Shown here: piece by piece, positions 448-15,604 of the stretch
How positions within the stretch are numbered: position 1 is the first letter of the stretch
How the letters are laid out: the number at the start of each line of letters is the position of its first letter
Virus record (IMG/VR): IMGVR_UViG_3300024239_000011
Coordinates: 454,303 to 518,302 of that record
Length of the DNA: 64,000 nucleotides
Reading direction: 5' to 3' (one strand)
From: a virus
Notes under the pieces: model-generated
What the model was told of the DNA's origin: nothing
What the model saw: the letters and a program-made list of their open reading frames with translations, nothing else
Databases searched by the model: none
Program-made: the position numbers and the translations under genes

Positions 448-2391
448 TCAACCCGCCCGACGAACGCGCATGTACCATTCCACGAGACGGCGCACTTGGC
501 GTTCGGTGTAGCCCTGCTCCACCATCCGGTTAAGGAAGTCGTGGTGTTTCTTCTCGGTGTCCTTGTCCTTCTTGGCACCGAACGAGATCACCGGCAGCAA
601 ATCTTCGGTGGCGCTGAACATGCGCTTTTCGATGACTTCCTTCATTTTCTCGTAGGAAGTCCACTTGGGCATTTTCCCGGCGTTGTTCGCTTTGTTGCAA
701 AGCACCCACTGGACGATTTCCTGACGGAAATCCTTGGGATTGGCGATGCCGCACGACTTCTCGATTTTCGACAGTTCAGTGTCGAGAACCGTCATGCTGA
801 ACATCTGACCGGTATCCGGGTCTTTATAATCCACGCCCTGACACCACGCATCCGCATAAGACACGTAACGCTCGAAGATGTTCTGACCGTATTCTGAATA
901 GCTGTCCAGATAAGCTTTCTGAAGGGTCTTTTCCAGATGCTCGGCATACTTGGGCGCCAGGAACTCCTTGATGAATTCAATGAGTTGCTGTTCTTTTTCC
1001 TCCGGGAACTGCTCGCGTTTGATTTCCTGTTCCAGCACATACATCAGATGCACGGGATCAGCCGCAACTTCGTTCGGGTCGAAGTTGAAGACTTTGGACA
1101 GGATTTTGAACGCGAAGCGGGTGGAGATGCCCTCCATACCCTCGTTGACGCCCGCGACATCACGATACTCTTGCATCGTCTTTGCCTTGGGGTCAACGTC
1201 CTTCAGACCTTCGCCGTTGTAGACGCGCATTTTTGAGAACAAGTTCGAGTTCTCGTGCTCCTTCAGACGCGACAGCACGCTGAATTGAGCCAGGATATCG
1301 AGGGTTTGCGGAGCGCACGGCGATTTTCCGAGGCTACCACCATCCAGCATTTTGCGATAGATGTCCACTTCCTCGTCATAGCGCAGGCAATAGGGTACCT
1401 TGATGACGCAGATACGGTCCAAGAACGCTTCGTTGTTCTTGTTATTGCGGAAAGTTTGCCACTCGGATTCGTTCGAGTGGGCGAGAATGATACCGTTGAA
1501 CGGGATCGCGCCCAGTGACTCGGTACCGATGTAGTTGCCTTCCTGCGTGGCGGTCAGCAGCGGATGCAGCACCTTGATGGGCGCCTTGAACATTTCCACG
1601 AATTCCATCACGCCCTGGTTTGCACGGCACAGAGCGCCGCTGAACGAGTAGCAGTCCGGGTCATTCTGGCTGTAGTGTTCCAGCTTGCGGATGTCCACCT
1701 TGCCAACTAGGGCGGAAATGTCCTGATTGTTCTCGTCGCCCGGTTCGGTTTTGCAGATCGCAACCTGCTTAAGACGGCTCGGGATCATCTTGACGACTTT
1801 GAATTTGGAATAGTCGCCACCGACTTCCCCCAGCCGCTTGACTGCCCATGGGGAGGTCAGACCGGTGATGTAGCGGGTCGGAATGTTGTATTCCGCTTCA
1901 ATTTCGTCTGCCAACGCCACCGGGAATAGGTTCAGGGGCGATTCGAAAACCGGTGACAGTTCGGAACGTTTACCGTCATCGAATTTCAGCACGTAGATCG
2001 GGTGCTTTTCCATCAGCGCCTTCAGGCGCTCAGCCAGCGAGGACTTACCACCGCCGACCGGACCAAGCAGGTAGAGAACCTGCTTGCGTTCTTCAAGACC
2101 CTGCGCGGCGTGGCGGAAATAACCAACGATGCGTTCCACGGTTTCTTCCATACCGAAGAAATCCGCAAAAGCCGGATACCGCTTAATCGTGCGATTCATG
2201 AAGATACGCGACAAACGCGGATCGGTGCTGGTATCAATAACTTCCGGTTCACCAATTGCCTTAACCATGCGTTCTGACGCAGAGGCATACATCAACGGGT
2301 CGGAGGCGCACTGTTGAAGGTATTCCTCCAAAGACATTTCCTCTTCGTGATCCCGTTGGAATGTCGCCTGGAACTTACTCAAAATCGACAT
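448..2391 (-). CDS. prkA: PrkA-type serine protein kinase (AAA+ domain)
   Basis: At 647 aa this matches bacterial PrkA/YeaG (about 640 aa) along its whole length. Walker A GPVGGGKS lies at about residues 110-117, within the PrkA AAA core, and the C-terminal kinase-like region with long charged helices follows. In bacteria PrkA takes part in stress and sporulation signalling and is usually next to yeaH and spoVR; neither partner is visible here. An upstream TTG at 2421 is in frame, but ATG 2391 has a good AAGGA seven bases away and is preferred. Codon use favours G/C-ending codons, unlike the AT-rich endonuclease genes. Phage copies probably alter host stress physiology, but that is inference. 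Confidence 0.9.
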   Translation of the reverse strand: MSILSKFQATFQRDHEEEMSLEEYLQQCASDPLMYASASERMVKAIGEPEVIDTSTDPRLSRIFMNRTIKRYPAFADFFGMEETVERIVGYFRHAAQGLEERKQVLYLLGPVGGGKSSLAERLKALMEKHPIYVLKFDDGKRSELSPVFESPLNLFPVALADEIEAEYNIPTRYITGLTSPWAVKRLGEVGGDYSKFKVVKMIPSRLKQVAICKTEPGDENNQDISALVGKVDIRKLEHYSQNDPDCYSFSGALCRANQGVMEFVEMFKAPIKVLHPLLTATQEGNYIGTESLGAIPFNGIILAHSNESEWQTFRNNKNNEAFLDRICVIKVPYCLRYDEEVDIYRKMLDGGSLGKSPCAPQTLDILAQFSVLSRLKEHENSNLFSKMRVYNGEGLKDVDPKAKTMQEYRDVAGVNEGMEGISTRFAFKILSKVFNFDPNEVAADPVHLMYVLEQEIKREQFPEEKEQQLIEFIKEFLAPKYAEHLEKTLQKAYLDSYSEYGQNIFERYVSYADAWCQGVDYKDPDTGQMFSMTVLDTELSKIEKSCGIANPKDFRQEIVQWVLCNKANNAGKMPKWTSYEKMKEVIEKRMFSATEDLLPVISFGAKKDKDTEKKHHDFLNRMVEQGYTERQVRRLVEWYMRVRRAG

Positions 2392-2447
2392 TTCTCGATC
2401 CTTGTCCGATTCCACCACCAAGGAACATCAATTCGATGCCCCAATAC

Positions 2448-6878: not shown

Positions 6879-7445
6879 TCACTCGACCCATTTCAGTTTG
6901 AAGAGGGTGGCATCCGAGGATTTTTGAAAGGCATACACGACGGAATTCAGTCCAGCAGTTGCCCAAATCGTCCAGGGCATACGTACTGTTTTCGCGATCC
7001 ATTCGTGTAAATCGTCGTTGTCCAGCGATTCCTTTGGCATTTCCACCCAGTACGGCAGCAGTTCCTTGATTGCATCCCCAAAAGAACTGGTGGTGCAATT
7101 CTTCACGCGCTCCCACCACGGTCCATTAAAGAAAAATTCCCATTTGAGGCGTTTGTTTTTGTCAATCCACTGTGGGGTGATTTCAATGTGGTTCCCGTCC
7201 AAATACGGATTGAAGGTCGCATTGAAGGTTTCTGGCTCCCATCGGAGGACGTATTTTACAGCGTGGTTGATGTTGGGAATTACCAGCATACAAGAATCTG
7301 CTTCGCAGTAGTTATGAGCGTAGCGTTGAGCAACCGTGATTTTACCATCAGTAGAAGTAAGATGAAATTTGATTTTTTGTTTACGCAACCATAACACTAT
7401 TGTTAGTGGTAACTGCTTTTGGTAGAACTTGAATTGTATGGACAT
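6879..7445 (-). CDS. Unknown protein with ATLFKLKW C-terminal tail
   Basis: About 188 aa from ATG 7445, preferred over ATG 7466 because GGAG lies six bases upstream. The body is rich in Trp and aromatic residues and matches nothing I know. The last residues read AFQKSSDATLFKLKWVE, the shared C-terminal motif of this cluster (see the genes between 7403 and 11177, and at 18512 and 25538). It is the last gene of a minus-strand operon and overlaps the previous one. Confidence 0.65.
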   Translation of the reverse strand: MSIQFKFYQKQLPLTIVLWLRKQKIKFHLTSTDGKITVAQRYAHNYCEADSCMLVIPNINHAVKYVLRWEPETFNATFNPYLDGNHIEITPQWIDKNKRLKWEFFFNGPWWERVKNCTTSSFGDAIKELLPYWVEMPKESLDNDDLHEWIAKTVRMPWTIWATAGLNSVVYAFQKSSDATLFKLKWVE

Positions 7446-11177: not shown

Positions 11178-11290
11178 TTTGTACCTCTTTGATTCGTAAG
11201 ATAATGTTCACGTTATGTTCCGTCGATTTATTTTTCATTGCTATCGAGAAAAATTCACACAGCGGTAACATAGTATGGTGATACAAGTCG

Positions 11291-11312
11291 GTAAATAACC
11301 TCAACTAGGAGG
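11291..11312 (+). promoter_or_regulatory. Late-type promoter with SD-pairing hairpin
   Basis: GTAAATA is followed by ACCTC, which can pair with the GAGG of the Shine-Dalgarno site six bases later. ATG 11319 follows. This suggests late, possibly structure-modulated expression of the lipid-type operon. Confidence 0.5.
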
Positions 11313-11318
11313 CAAATA

Positions 11319-12077
11319 ATGAAGGCTTATCGTACTATTTGGATTAGTGATACGCATTTAGGGACTAAAGGTTGTAAAGCATCATTTTTAGTCGATTTCT
11401 TAAAACACAATACTTGCGATACACTTTATCTTGTTGGCGACATCATCGATGGATGGCGCATGAAAAGTGGCATGTTTTGGCCGCAAGAACATACAAATGT
11501 AGTCCGTCGAATATTGACCAAGGCAAAACGCGGTACGAGCGTTGTTTATATTCCAGGGAACCATGACGATTTTCTTCGGGCGTGGTTGGAGTATCATCCT
11601 CAATTCGGGAACATAGTAATACAGAACGAAGCGATTCATACCTTGAGTGATGGACGTAAGGTGTTGGTAACTCATGGCGATCTTTTTGATGGCATCACGT
11701 GTTATGCGCCGTGGCTTTCAAAACTAGGTGATCACGGATATGGTTTTTTGCTAACATTCAATCATTTGTTCAATAAGGTTAGGAGTAAATTAGGGTACAA
11801 ATATTGGTCCTTGAGTTCTTTTGTAAAAGGAAAGGTCAAATCCGCTGTGAACTTTATTACCAGTTTCGAGCAATCACTTGCACGTGAGGCAAAAACACGG
11901 GGACTGGATGGGGTGATTTGTGGACATATTCACCATGCGGAGATACGCGAGATTGACGGAATACTCTATGCCAATGATGGTGATTGGGTAGAAAGTTGTA
12001 CCGCACTAGTCGAACATCATGACGGGCGTCTTGAGATCGTCAAATGGGTTGAAATTTCACATGAGCAAGAAATATGA
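11319..12077 (+). CDS. PlcP/LpxH-like metallophosphoesterase
   Basis: 252 aa, complete calcineurin-like phosphoesterase: DTHLG (D11, H13), GDIIDG (residues 40-45), GNHDD (80-84), THGD (118-121) and GHIHH near the C-terminus. It closely resembles the alphaproteobacterial family usually labelled UDP-2,3-diacylglucosamine diphosphatase, with its hallmark DGWRMK, YWSLS and GDWVESCTALVEH segments. That family includes PlcP, a phospholipase C that removes phosphate head groups during phosphate starvation. The next gene overlaps by ATGA and is a GT4 glycosyltransferase, the same order as the plcP-agt operon. An LpxH-like lipid A role is the alternative. Confidence 0.8.
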   Translation: MKAYRTIWISDTHLGTKGCKASFLVDFLKHNTCDTLYLVGDIIDGWRMKSGMFWPQEHTNVVRRILTKAKRGTSVVYIPGNHDDFLRAWLEYHPQFGNIVIQNEAIHTLSDGRKVLVTHGDLFDGITCYAPWLSKLGDHGYGFLLTFNHLFNKVRSKLGYKYWSLSSFVKGKVKSAVNFITSFEQSLAREAKTRGLDGVICGHIHHAEIREIDGILYANDGDWVESCTALVEHHDGRLEIVKWVEISHEQEI

Positions 12078-13081
12078 AGATAGTAATTTGCACAGATGCC
12101 TCCCGTCCACAGATCAACGGGGTCGTAACTACTCTGGAACATACAAAAACAGAGCTTGAAAACCTTGGTCATGAAGTCATTATGATCGAGCCATCGTTAT
12201 TCGCAACGATACCTTGTCCAAGTTATTCGGAAATTCGCTTAGCGTATAATGCTTTTTGGCATCTACCCCGCCTTATAAATGAAATTGACCCGGATTCCAT
12301 ACATATAGCAACGGAAGGTCCGATTGGCGCTGCGGCGCGGTTATACTGTGCGTTAAAACAGATACCATATTCAACATCTTACCATACAAAATTTCCAGAA
12401 TATGTTCGCAAACGTTGGCCGATACCGTTATGGGTTACGTATGGTTACCTTCGCTTGATACACGGCAGCGCCAAGGCAATATTGGTTACGACTGGATCAA
12501 TGGCTACCGAATTACATGAGCGTGGATTTAAAAACCTAGTCGTATGGTCTAGAGGCGTGGATTCGGATTTGTTTTCACCATCGCGTGCGACTGATCTCGG
12601 GTTGCCACGCCCAATTCATCTGTCGGTAGGGCGTATATCAATAGAGAAAGGTTTGGATGATTTTCTCGCCCTACAAATACCCGGCACCAAATTGGTAGTT
12701 GGGGATGGTCCACAATTGAAGGATATGAAGAGCCGATATCCTGATGCGATTTTTGTAGGAGCAAAGCGTGGAACCGATCTGGCGACATATTACGCCTCTG
12801 CTGACGTTTTTGTATTTCCGAGTAAGACCGACACATTTGGGGTGGTAATGCTTGAAGCAATGGCGTCCGGTACCCCCGTCGCGGCTTATCCGGTTACCGG
12901 ACCAAAAGATGTGATCACCAATGGGAGCGGTAAGCTGGATACCGATCTCAAAAGGGCAATTGAACATTGTTATACGATTGACCGGCGTCAATGCGCTGAG
13001 TTGGGGCGCACATTCACCTGGGAGTCATGCGCCCGCACTTTCCTCAATTCATTGGCGATCATCCCCAAATTTACGCGCTAA
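12074..13081 (+). CDS. GT4 glycosyltransferase (Agt-like, lipid type)
   Basis: 335 aa. The N-terminus ICTDASRPQINGVVTTLEHT and middle IHIATEGPIGAAARLYC are typical of the GT4 enzymes that glycosylate diacylglycerol in alphaproteobacteria and related bacteria. The donor site VFPSKTDTFGVVMLEAMASG carries the variant TDTFG...LEA motif of that group. ATG 12074 overlaps the phosphoesterase stop by 4 bp, so the two are translated together. If the pair acts like PlcP-Agt, the first makes diacylglycerol from phospholipid and this one adds a sugar to it. Acceptor and sugar cannot be read from sequence. Confidence 0.8.
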   Translation: MKIVICTDASRPQINGVVTTLEHTKTELENLGHEVIMIEPSLFATIPCPSYSEIRLAYNAFWHLPRLINEIDPDSIHIATEGPIGAAARLYCALKQIPYSTSYHTKFPEYVRKRWPIPLWVTYGYLRLIHGSAKAILVTTGSMATELHERGFKNLVVWSRGVDSDLFSPSRATDLGLPRPIHLSVGRISIEKGLDDFLALQIPGTKLVVGDGPQLKDMKSRYPDAIFVGAKRGTDLATYYASADVFVFPSKTDTFGVVMLEAMASGTPVAAYPVTGPKDVITNGSGKLDTDLKRAIEHCYTIDRRQCAELGRTFTWESCARTFLNSLAIIPKFTR

Positions 13082-13085: not shown

Positions 13086-13112
13086 AAAAACCGATGTTAT
13101 TTGGAGTAGGTG

Positions 13113-13607
13113 ATGAGGTTGATTGAGGTGCTGGAAGAGAGCGCAACCGATAGCCTTCAGCGCAGAATTGCAAGTCTCGAAGCCATTATGAACGATCCTG
13201 CTGCAACAGCCGGGGAACGGGAGAATGCTCGTCTCTTGAAGGACAATTTGGAGCGGAAACGCGCATCAAGCATACCTACGGTGGAAACCGTTCTTATTCA
13301 AGTCCTTCAGAACATGAACGCTTATTGCGAACCGCCTTATTACGGGGCGCAACTTTGGGGTTTGAACTGGATACGTTTCATCGAATTTCTAACATCTGCG
13401 TTGCGTCCGTACTGCACCATCGTTGGGCGTAGTCCAACAAGTGGCGACTATTCCATCAGTATGGACTACTCCCGGCGTATAATCACAATTAGTTATAACA
13501 GCAGTTATATGAAAGTCGCCAGCCCCCAACATTTCATTGGGAAGTTGCTATTTGCAGACCTAAAGCCAATCGTTGAACGGATGGTCGCGACGAGTAGAGC
13601 CGCTTAA
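13113..13607 (+). CDS. Unknown late protein with MRLIEVLEES leader
   Basis: 164 aa. ATG 13113 is chosen over GTG 13110; GGAG lies upstream. The leader MRLIEVLEESATD is strikingly like MRLSEILLEDEVATD of the ADP-ribosyltransferase-like protein at 3638 and like T4 capsid-targeting peptides. A helical segment ATAGERENARLLKDNLERK follows, then a globular strand-rich domain with SISMDYSRRIITISYNS. Function unknown; packaging in the head and ejection is a reasonable guess. The stop overlaps the convergent gene by four bases. Confidence 0.6.
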   Translation: MRLIEVLEESATDSLQRRIASLEAIMNDPAATAGERENARLLKDNLERKRASSIPTVETVLIQVLQNMNAYCEPPYYGAQLWGLNWIRFIEFLTSALRPYCTIVGRSPTSGDYSISMDYSRRIITISYNSSYMKVASPQHFIGKLLFADLKPIVERMVATSRAA

Positions 13608-14359
13608 CCATTTTGTAGGATAAGCGCCCGATCATCTAGTGCATGGGTGAGGATGATCGTCTCCCCTACCATGGCGGCGGACCACGCCGCACCAAGTATA
13701 CCTTCAAGCGTATTGCATTGCCAACGGGCAGATTCGTCCAGTCGGAATGGACTGTTTAGGTTGTGACGGCGCATTGTGCGATCTGCGGTACCGAAGTCAA
13801 TCACATTGAACCGGTATTTTTGGGTCGGTGTCTCGATCACCAGCTTTTCGTCAATAATGCCAACGCGATCTGCAAATGAATTCATAAGGAAAGCTGTCGC
13901 CGCCTCATTGGTGTTACGTTTTTTCTTGCCAGTGGATTCGTGACCATCGTCCCCAATATTAATATACTTTTCAACATTCTCTTTGGTCAGGTTTTCGACC
14001 TTCTTGTGCTTATACGGTTTAAATTTCCATATATCGACATCCACCAAAACTTTTATTTCGCCTATGAGTTCCATAAGCTCTTCGGGGAATTTGTCCCCAC
14101 GGGGGTATTCCACAAATACGAGGTAGTACCCATCTTCATTGGGTGCCGGTGATGGTTCCGTATCCAGTATCTTGTTCGCCCCTTTTTCGATAAACCGAGA
14201 CAAATCGTTCGCGGGGTCTTCGTCCTCAACGAAGAAGGCGACGACGATCACCTCCTTGTCGTTACCGAGTTTGCTCTTATATTCATCGATAGAGATGAGA
14301 GGTAGCACAAGCTCCTTGAGATCGCCAGCGCGTAAACCTTCATAGATGTTATATCGCAT
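13604..14359 (-). CDS. Unknown phage protein, probable structural partner
   Basis: 251 aa from ATG 14359 (GGGAG seven bases upstream; an in-frame TTG at 14365 is less likely). It starts MRYNIYEGLRAGDL and has ISIDEYKSKLGNDKEVIVVAF and a SPAPNEDGYYLVFVEY segment, followed by a Lys-rich linker and a C-terminal domain. I have an impression that similar proteins occur in T4-like jumbo and cyanophages but cannot name a function. It follows the gene at 14372 closely and probably shares its late promoter. Confidence 0.6.
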   Translation of the reverse strand: MRYNIYEGLRAGDLKELVLPLISIDEYKSKLGNDKEVIVVAFFVEDEDPANDLSRFIEKGANKILDTEPSPAPNEDGYYLVFVEYPRGDKFPEELMELIGEIKVLVDVDIWKFKPYKHKKVENLTKENVEKYINIGDDGHESTGKKKRNTNEAATAFLMNSFADRVGIIDEKLVIETPTQKYRFNVIDFGTADRTMRRHNLNSPFRLDESARWQCNTLEGILGAAWSAAMVGETIILTHALDDRALILQNG

Positions 14360-14371
14360 AGGCAAACTCCC

Positions 14372-14947
14372 TTATAGGTTTAGGTCTAATTGGTCATCGC
14401 CTTGGGCGGGTTGACTATCTGGGTTATCCGCGCCGCCCTGGGCATCGGTATCGGCATTGTTAAGACCCATGTCCAAACCTTCATCTTCGGCGGATTCAAC
14501 ATCTTCAATTTCCACCTCGTCATCATACATTTCGATGGATTGATCAATAATTTCATCAATAAAACGGCGTGGTATTCGCATACTCACTAGCCAAATTTTG
14601 GTATGTTCCAATTTTGGTTTACGGGTGCCATCGCGGAAGTCGTTGGGTGTTTCTACTTTGATTGGATTAAGTTCAGTGCTTTCTTTAAAAGAAACTCGCA
14701 CGTCATGCTCGACCAACCGCATCCCTCCTTTTGGATCAGGCATCTTGCTGTAAGGATATTTGAGAGTCATTTCACACCAATACCGACTAACCACCGGACC
14801 TTCGACTACCTCGCCATCTATCCAATTCTTAAAGGCATACAGGTCGAGGCTGTCGAGGAAGTCTTCCATCTCAATAAGGATATCAAGCAAGCTTTCATTC
14901 TCGTTTAAACGCTTGATCACTTCTGCGGGGTTCAGTTCTCTCGGCAT
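14372..14947 (-). CDS. Unknown acidic-tailed protein
   Basis: 191 aa. A helical N-terminal region is followed by a strand-rich middle (SRYWCEMTLKYPYSK) and a long acidic, Asp/Gln-rich, probably disordered C-terminus. Downstream of a late promoter and hairpin, and cotranscribed with the gene at 13604. The disordered acidic tail would fit a scaffold or adaptor role, but there is no direct support. Confidence 0.6.
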   Translation of the reverse strand: MPRELNPAEVIKRLNENESLLDILIEMEDFLDSLDLYAFKNWIDGEVVEGPVVSRYWCEMTLKYPYSKMPDPKGGMRLVEHDVRVSFKESTELNPIKVETPNDFRDGTRKPKLEHTKIWLVSMRIPRRFIDEIIDQSIEMYDDEVEIEDVESAEDEGLDMGLNNADTDAQGGADNPDSQPAQGDDQLDLNL

Positions 14948-15058: not shown

Positions 15059-15127
15059 GATCTTCAGACGGGGAGCCGAACCCAGTCGAAGACAACAGAT
15101 CGGCACATGGACTACGGAGAACAAAAT

Positions 15128-15604
15128 ATGTCTGCCCAAAACACCGAACGTAATGCCTTCATCACCCAGGGCGTCAACGCCTTCCTCAACGGCGCTGGTG
15201 CCGGTGTCACCCGCGAGAAGATCGCTGAAGTCACCGCCGCGCTGGGCGATGCCTTCGACAGCATGAACAAGCCCGCCGAAGTCGTCGCCGAGAAGCCGGT
15301 GCCCGCCATCGCGGTCAAGAAGTCGATCAACCCCGATTTCATCGTCTGCCTGGAAGACGGCAAGAAGCTGAAGATGCTGAAGCGCCATCTGCGCACCACC
15401 TACAACCTGTCCCCCGAGGAATATCGGGAAAAGTGGGGTCTGCCCGCCGACTACCCGATGGTCGCCCCGAACTACGCCGCTCAGCGTTCGTCGCTGGCGA
15501 AGGAACACGGTCTGGGTCGCAAGCCCGCCGCTGCCGCCCCGGCTGCCCAGCCCGCCGACGCCAAGCCGCGCCATCGCCGCAAGAGTGCCGACAAGGCGGC
15601 GTAA
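15128..15604 (+). CDS. MucR/Ros-family transcriptional regulator
   Basis: 158 aa from ATG 15128 (GGAG eight bases upstream). The family core is clear: NPDFIVCLEDGKKLKMLKRH, then LSPEEYREKWGLPADYPMVA and RSSLAKEHGLG. MucR/Ros proteins bind AT-rich DNA and control exopolysaccharide, motility and cell-cycle genes in Alphaproteobacteria. The usual second Cys of the zinc finger is Asp and the second His is Thr (RHLRTTY), so zinc may not be bound, as reported for zinc-less relatives in Mesorhizobium. The gene is far more GC-rich than its neighbours, suggesting recent capture from the host or strong translational selection. Confidence 0.9.
   Translation: MSAQNTERNAFITQGVNAFLNGAGAGVTREKIAEVTAALGDAFDSMNKPAEVVAEKPVPAIAVKKSINPDFIVCLEDGKKLKMLKRHLRTTYNLSPEEYREKWGLPADYPMVAPNYAAQRSSLAKEHGLGRKPAAAAPAAQPADAKPRHRRKSADKAA

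What the first reader, a model, noticed from the sequence alone, without database searches (positions are those of the whole stretch)
11291..13081. Candidate phage lipid-remodelling operon (PlcP-like phosphoesterase plus GT4 glycosyltransferase)
The two genes overlap by ATGA and occur in the order of the bacterial plcP-agt operon, which under phosphate starvation strips phosphate from phospholipids and replaces them with glycolipids. All catalytic motifs are intact. A phage using this could free phosphate for DNA synthesis or change the host surface. The late-type promoter points instead to action near virion assembly or lysis. I know of no described phage system of this kind.
Basis: partly seen in the sequence, partly recalled or inferred. 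Interest (0 to 1): 0.85.

Follow-up and report, generated by a model that had tools for sequence, protein, structure and literature searches.

The report
Phage glycolipid-swapping gene pair (plcP-agt)
A giant bacterial virus carries two genes that bacteria use when starved of phosphate to swap membrane phospholipids for sugar lipids, and many related viruses carry the same pair, often behind a phosphate-starvation switch, so viruses may remodel the membranes of the cells they infect.

Summary
plcP (11319-12077 +) and agt (12074-13081 +) overlap by ATGA inside a 543-kb T4-type jumbo phage record. The phosphoesterase is PlcP, not LpxH: 57% identity to the experimentally studied P. aeruginosa PlcP versus 24% to E. 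coli LpxH, a 100/100 tree split, and GNHD instead of GNRD. The glycosyltransferase belongs to the DAG-glycosylating Agt/GTcp clade and keeps every tested catalytic, UDP-sugar and DAG-site residue except one variable position. The pair is not a one-off. Of 70 viral agt loci, 65 have plcP directly upstream; 18 of 37 contigs tested carry phage hallmark genes. Viral copies are under purifying selection. New here: many viral plcP genes have Pho-box tandem repeats upstream (22/93 exact, none at seven other spacings, about 0.02 expected). Some sit directly behind a phage pstS; three contigs add olsB. The window's own operon has no recognisable Pho box, and the claimed late promoter is no better than chance. 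Best reading: a phage phosphorus-sparing, phospholipid-to-glycolipid module; activity is inferred, not shown. No open-access paper found describes it. Cultured relatives Atu_ph07 and Phosso lack plcP; isolates Mosig and S-SRM01 carry plcP alone, labelled as LpxH-type enzymes.

The parts
11178..11318 (+). intergenic leader holding the unidentified promoter of the pair; no Pho box, no significant late (TATAAATA) or sigma-70 match
11307..11312 (+). ribosome-binding site AGGAGG of plcP
   Evidence: sequence read directly
11319..12077 (+). plcP: PlcP-type metallophosphoesterase (phospholipase C type), 252 aa, all metal ligands, GNHD motif
12074..13081 (+). agt: GT4 diacylglycerol glycosyltransferase of the Agt/GTcp clade, 335 aa, ATGA overlap with plcP
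13110..13607 (+). third ORF of the same-strand cluster, 165 aa, starts 28 nt after agt; no family match, not found next to plcP-agt elsewhere; membership in the system uncertain
13604..14947 (-). two virion structural genes (13604-14365, 14372-14947) that end the core block shared with Atu_ph07 and Phosso; boundary of the cargo cassette, not part of the system

Best explanation
The pair is a phage-borne copy of the bacterial plcP-agt lipid-remodelling pathway, kept as accessory cargo by this jumbo phage and by many other large T4-type phages. PlcP cleaves the head group from glycerophospholipids to give diacylglycerol plus a phospho-alcohol. [quoted passage not shown] In the infected cell this makes membrane phosphorus available for phage DNA and spares the host's phosphate budget. 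In related phages the module is most likely switched on by the host PhoB regulator. Shown here: protein identity, conserved active sites, operon conservation, viral location, purifying selection, and Pho boxes with pstS linkage in relatives. Inferred: enzyme activities, the acceptor and sugar in this phage, timing, and benefit to the phage. In this window the promoter type is unknown.
For: PlcP identity: 57.3% to P. aeruginosa PA3219, the PlcP of a genetically shown pathway; about 280-365 bits to most bacterial PlcP beside agt versus 24-28 bits to LpxH; LpxH split off 100/100 in the tree; GNHD in all viral and bacterial PlcP (146/147 with the Asp, 147/147 with the His), GNRD in 4/4 LpxH. Agt identity: 50% to Thalassospira, Methylophaga and Rhizobium Agt, 44% to Agt1 PA3218. 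Residues whose mutation abolishes or nearly abolishes GTcp activity (H104, D256, G16, G82, G85, R163, R190, K195, T257, F258, G259, E264, W320 in PMC8231724) are all present at the matching window positions. Predicted GT-B fold, pLDDT 91, MshA as top hit. Operon: 65/70 viral agt loci have plcP upstream; bacterial loci 50/80 by the same automatic count, about 56/80 on inspection. Viral: gp23, portal or terminase on 18 of 37 contigs. Selection: median dN/dS 0.05 for plcP and 0.13 for agt among viral copies. Phosphate link: exact TGTMAY-N5-TGTMAY upstream of 22/93 viral plcP, none at seven other spacings, shuffles 0.02; independent E. coli-type consensus scan 18 versus 3.6 expected, 0/300 shuffles as high; Pho box on 6/16 contigs with hallmarks; PstS equivalogs directly upstream of plcP, with Pho box.
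Against: No enzyme assay, expression or lipid data exist. The window operon has no Pho box within 400 nt, and G000 has neither pstS nor olsB, so the phosphate link rests on relatives. More than half of the viral plcP loci nearest to the window (49 of 80) show no agt on the fragment held. PlcP frees phospho-alcohols rather than free phosphate, so further enzymes are needed. The Agt acceptor cannot be read from sequence alone.
Confidence: 0.72

Rival explanations
1. The pair makes glycolipids, but the benefit is a changed cell envelope (charge, adsorption, superinfection exclusion, peptide resistance) rather than phosphorus.
For: Glycoglycerolipids raise polymyxin resistance in P. aeruginosa (PMC9804370). 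Glycosphingolipids lower phage adsorption in Caulobacter (PMC6445935). The window copy has no Pho box.
Against: Relatives place the genes behind Pho boxes and next to pstS. No evidence that DAG glycolipids affect a receptor here.
Confidence: 0.15
2. The glycosyltransferase uses another acceptor (for example ceramide or an LPS or surface precursor), with PlcP acting separately.
For: GT4 enzymes accept many substrates; Caulobacter Sgt1 is a lipid GT4 specific for ceramide. One of the nearest bacterial rows in the Agt tree is a Brevundimonas protein with no plcP within 3 kb.
Against: Tight plcP-agt coupling in phages and bacteria; conserved DAG-site residues R160 and W316; about 50% identity to the GTcp/Agt clade, whose tested members glycosylate DAG.
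Confidence: 0.06
3. The phosphoesterase is an LpxH-type UDP-2,3-diacylglucosamine hydrolase for lipid A, as database labels say.
For: Nearest solved structures are LpxH; relatives are annotated so.
Against: 24% identity and 24-28 bits to LpxH; far below the curated LpxH cut-offs (46 of 190 bits and 41 of 134 bits); tree split 100/100; GNHD, not GNRD. No PlcP was named among the PDB hits, so LpxH as nearest solved fold is expected.
Confidence: 0.03
4. The pair is silent cargo picked up from a host, or the viral contigs are bacterial contamination.
For: Cultured relatives Atu_ph07 and Phosso lack plcP. Many IMG/VR contigs are fragments without hallmark genes.
Against: The window pair sits directly after a structural block syntenic with Atu_ph07 and Phosso. 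Hallmarks on 18/37 contigs. dN/dS 0.05-0.13. Virus-only PlcP and Agt clades.
Confidence: 0.04

Closest known systems
Bacterial plcP-agt lipid-remodelling operon (P. aeruginosa PA3219-PA3218; Methylosinus trichosporium OB3b; SAR11 HTCC7211)
   Same: Same two enzymes, same order, overlapping stop-start in many members, same catalytic residues; Pho boxes in many bacterial and viral members
   Different: Carried by T4-type jumbo phages; the window copy has no recognisable Pho box; virus-only sequence clades
GTcp of Candidatus Pelagibacter HTCC7211 and Agt of A. tumefaciens (GT4 DAG glycosyltransferases)
   Same: All key catalytic, donor-site and DAG-site residues; GT-B fold predicted; about 50% identity to clade members from genera named in PMC8231724
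   Different: Donor sugar untested; about a quarter of viral relatives (not the window) have Glu at the catalytic Asp
Phage phosphate genes under host PhoB control (cyanophage pstS)
   Same: Phage genes behind Pho boxes for use in phosphate-starved hosts (PMC10976474); in several relatives plcP follows pstS directly
   Different: Acts on membrane lipid rather than on phosphate uptake; the cyanophage S-SRM01 has a PlcP alone
LpxH, UDP-2,3-diacylglucosamine hydrolase
   Same: Same calcineurin-like superfamily and nearest solved fold
   Different: 24% identity, separate clade, GNRD instead of GNHD

Membership tests
PlcP phospholipase C-type metallophosphoesterase | groups with experimentally studied PlcP and apart from LpxH | tested here: met
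   tree split 100/100; 57.3% to PA3219, 23.9% to E. coli LpxH
PlcP phospholipase C-type metallophosphoesterase | complete two-metal site and GNHD motif | tested here: met
   all ligands present; His of GNHD in 147/147 viral and 62/62 bacterial PlcP, Arg in 4/4 LpxH
PlcP phospholipase C-type metallophosphoesterase | hydrolyses phospholipids to diacylglycerol | not testable with these tools
   needs an enzyme assay
Agt/GTcp GT4 diacylglycerol glycosyltransferase | sequence clade with GTcp homologues (46-58% identity within the clade, under 25% to other GT4, PMC8231724) | tested here: met
   50-51% to Thalassospira, Methylophaga and Rhizobium members; 592 or more bacterial relatives, best at 54%; GTcp and atu2297 themselves were not to hand
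Agt/GTcp GT4 diacylglycerol glycosyltransferase | catalytic dyad His-Asp, donor residues and DAG residues shown by mutation in PMC8231724 | tested here: met
   H104, D253, G16, G82, G85, R187, K192, T254, F255, G256, E261, R160, W316 present; T162 position is Ser in the window and variable in the family
Agt/GTcp GT4 diacylglycerol glycosyltransferase | makes glycosyl-diacylglycerol | not testable with these tools
   needs expression and lipid mass spectrometry
plcP-agt operon | agt directly downstream of plcP | tested here: met
   ATGA overlap in the window; 65/70 viral agt loci
plcP-agt operon | phosphate-starvation control (Pho box) | tested here: not met
   no Pho box within 400 nt of window plcP, though present in many viral relatives; in bacteria too only 17/47 plcP upstreams have a recognisable one, so this feature is common rather than strictly defining
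LpxH | NCBIfam LpxH equivalog cut-off | tested here: not met
   46.2 of 190.35 bits (TIGR01854) and 41.4 of 134 bits (NF003743)
T4-type late promoter control | TATAAATA upstream | tested here: not met
   6/8 match, equalled or beaten by most shuffles; exact sites occur at four other places in the window

The most novel reading that the evidence does not exclude
Large T4-type phages carry a movable Pho module (pstS-plcP-agt, in some contigs with olsB) that listens to the host PhoB system. It actively replaces host phospholipid by phosphorus-free glycolipid and ornithine lipid during infection, turning the host membrane into a phosphorus store for phage DNA.
Probability: 0.4. Interest if true: 0.88.

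Novelty: new variant of a known kind. Interest (0 to 1): 0.74.

Why it matters
Phage auxiliary genes for phosphate uptake are known, but a complete two-enzyme pathway for replacing membrane phospholipid is, as far as the open literature searched shows, undescribed in phages. If active, it adds membrane lipid to the pools that phages mine and links viral infection to the phosphate-stress glycolipids of aquatic bacteria. It also means that some viral genes labelled lpxH, and counted as lipopolysaccharide genes in virome surveys, may be misassigned. The hypothesis is directly testable in E. coli and with isolated phages.

Tried and rejected
LpxH identity: rejected. Late promoter: rejected as no better than chance. 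Pho box in the window: searched with three methods, absent. sigma-70 and terminator scan: no excess over shuffles. Third ORF as a system member: no family and no relatives beside plcP-agt. pstS or olsB elsewhere in G000: none. Host-derived contamination: rejected for the window. Literature searches for a described phage PlcP-Agt: nothing; the library is open-access only. The S. meliloti PlcP fetched (L239) is a pSymB copy and was not shown to be the characterised chromosomal enzyme, so it was used only as one more PlcP row.

Full report
WHAT IS THERE. Two ORFs lie on the + strand at 11319-12077 (252 aa) and 12074-13081 (335 aa) and share ATGA. An AGGAGG site precedes the first. The window is bases 454303-518302 of a 543,035-base IMG/VR virus record with a T4-type major capsid gene (PF07068, E 4.6e-81) and portal gene (PF07230, E 9.7e-111). 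The cassette is flanked by genes on the opposite strand.

The core block on its right contains a clamp-loader homologue, two small genes, PhoH and two virion structural genes. It matches the same block in Agrobacterium phage Atu_ph07 (490 kb) and Sinorhizobium phage Phosso (469 kb). The plcP-agt cassette lies just beyond the end of that block, and a whole-record search finds no plcP in either relative. The pair is therefore accessory cargo at a core boundary of a phage that probably infects an alphaproteobacterium. The MucR-type regulator at 15107-15604 has its named phage relatives in phages of Mesorhizobium, Erythrobacter and Citromicrobium.

THE PHOSPHOESTERASE IS PlcP. It is 57.3% identical to the PlcP of P. 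aeruginosa and 23.9% to E. coli LpxH. The P. aeruginosa protein (L240, WP_003091510.1) was taken to be PA3219 from its downstream glycosyltransferase and neighbours; that pathway is shown by genetics and lipidomics in PMC8528852. Bacterial PlcP beside agt mostly score 280-365 bits against the window protein; LpxH scores 24-28. In the tree, LpxH separates at 100/100. The His of GNHD is present in 147/147 viral and 62/62 bacterial PlcP, where 4/4 LpxH have Arg. The protein misses the curated LpxH cut-offs by a wide margin. The nearest solved folds are LpxH at 18-20% identity. So the two share a superfamily but are not the same family.

THE GLYCOSYLTRANSFERASE IS OF THE Agt/GTcp CLADE. Identity is 50-51% to Thalassospira, Methylophaga and Rhizobium members and 44% to Agt1 PA3218. 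PMC8231724 lists GTcp residues whose mutation destroys or nearly destroys activity. Each has its counterpart in the window protein (H104, D253, G16, G82, G85, R187, K192, T254, F255, G256, E261, R160, W316); only the variable Thr162 position differs (Ser). The predicted structure (pLDDT 91) is GT-B with MshA, the paper's own template, as first hit. Identity to GTcp or atu2297 themselves was not measured because those records were not to hand.

IT IS WIDESPREAD AND CONSERVED IN VIRUSES. Of the 70, 65 have plcP directly upstream. Contigs of 31-453 kb were checked for hallmarks: gp23, terminase and T4 portal. Of 37, 18 have at least one, including the 453-, 338- and 323-kb contigs. Viral sequences form several virus-only clades in both trees. 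Between close viral pairs the median dN/dS is 0.053 (plcP) and 0.13 (agt), similar to bacterial copies. Isolated phages with PlcP are few. Pelagibacter phage Mosig has one (51-52%), divergent to a phosphate-transporter gene, and Synechococcus phage S-SRM01 has one (37%); neither has agt.

A PHOSPHATE SWITCH IN RELATIVES. A scan with the consensus given in PMC8528852 (CTGTCATNNNNCTGTCAT) found 18 of 95 viral plcP upstreams at 10/14 or better, against 3.6 in dinucleotide shuffles (0 of 300 as high). Bacterial plcP upstreams, the positive control, gave 17 of 47 against 1.9. Exact tandem TGTMAY-N5-TGTMAY occurs upstream of 22 of 93 viral plcP, never at the other spacings tested (2-4, 6-9), against 0.02 in shuffles. 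A matrix refined on viral sites marks 37 of 93 plcP upstreams, mostly at -40 or -50, versus 20 of 676 other ORFs of the same loci; that figure uses a matrix trained on the same data. Six of 16 contigs with hallmarks have the box at plcP. In L045, L014 and L068 the gene directly before plcP is a curated PstS equivalog with its own Pho box. In L090, L092 and L093 an Acetyltransf_5/OlsB-type gene (L093 above the curated OlsB cut-off) lies upstream of plcP-agt, but these three contigs gave no hallmark. PMC10976474 warns that Pho boxes predicted in phages are not always functional.

WHAT THE WINDOW LACKS. There is no Pho box within 400 nt, no pstS or olsB in G000, and no convincing promoter of any type. 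Timing is open.

MECHANISM. Following the bacterial pathway (PMC8528852, PMC9239053, PMC8231724), PlcP would cut phospholipids to diacylglycerol and a phospho-alcohol, and Agt would cap the diacylglycerol with a sugar. The phage gains phosphorus and avoids diacylglycerol build-up and membrane loss. The enzyme steps follow from family membership. The benefit is inference, supported by the Pho-box and pstS linkage in relatives. The main rival keeps the chemistry but makes the envelope the target.

NOVELTY. Searches of open-access papers found plcP only as a bacterial gene or as an influence on phage binding, never as a phage gene. Virome surveys count lpxH among viral genes (PMC10653327); some of these may be plcP, which was not checked. 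The enzymes are known; a phage-borne pair, and its Pho-box control in relatives, appear new.

Noticed in passing
IMG/VR loci L054, L067, L075, L049, L015 and others, 39-51 nt (L054 123 nt) before plcP: Pho-box tandem repeats (TTGTAAC/T NNNN CTGTAAC/T) precede viral plcP genes far above chance; a phage Pho regulon in uncultured phages.
   Followed up: yes
L014:4900-5910, L045:4923-5918, L068:4897-5937: PstS equivalogs directly upstream of viral plcP, each with a Pho box.
   Followed up: partly
L093:3699-4607, L090:2820-3728, L092:3425-4327: OlsB-type ornithine acyltransferase genes beside viral plcP-agt, with Pho-box-like repeats; only three related contigs and no hallmark gene found on them.
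   Followed up: partly
viral Agt column matching window D253: 24 of 100 viral Agt have Glu at the catalytic Asp, a change that cost GTcp over 90% of its activity (PMC8231724); the window keeps Asp.
   Followed up: no
L003:5748-7835 (MT836169.1): Polyphosphate kinase gene near a plcP in an unverified faecal 'Bacteriophage sp.' record; possibly bacterial DNA.
   Followed up: no
window 21494, 26837, 28214 (-) and 41206 (+): Exact TATAAATA sites, most of them upstream of ORFs on the same strand, as T4 late promoters would be; the count itself is not above chance (14 of 100 shuffles).
   Followed up: partly
window 448-2421 -: Full-length PrkA serine protein kinase (PF08298 + PF06798), unusual cargo for a phage.
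   Followed up: no
window 15107-15604 +: ROS/MucR transcriptional regulator, hint of an alphaproteobacterial host.
   Followed up: partly
window 7765, 8025, 10340, 10651 (- strand gene ends); related DNA repeats at 6887 and 7519: Four otherwise different small genes end in the same C-terminal tail, A-T-L/M-F-R/K-x-K/R-W-A/C (e.g. QATMFRLKWA, HATLFRMKWC), and a 28-nt DNA repeat marks two more places; a shared C-terminal tag of unknown purpose.
   Followed up: partly
L101:36-3876: DNA polymerase B gene with intein-splicing domains, close upstream of plcP-agt on a 453-kb phage contig.
   Followed up: no
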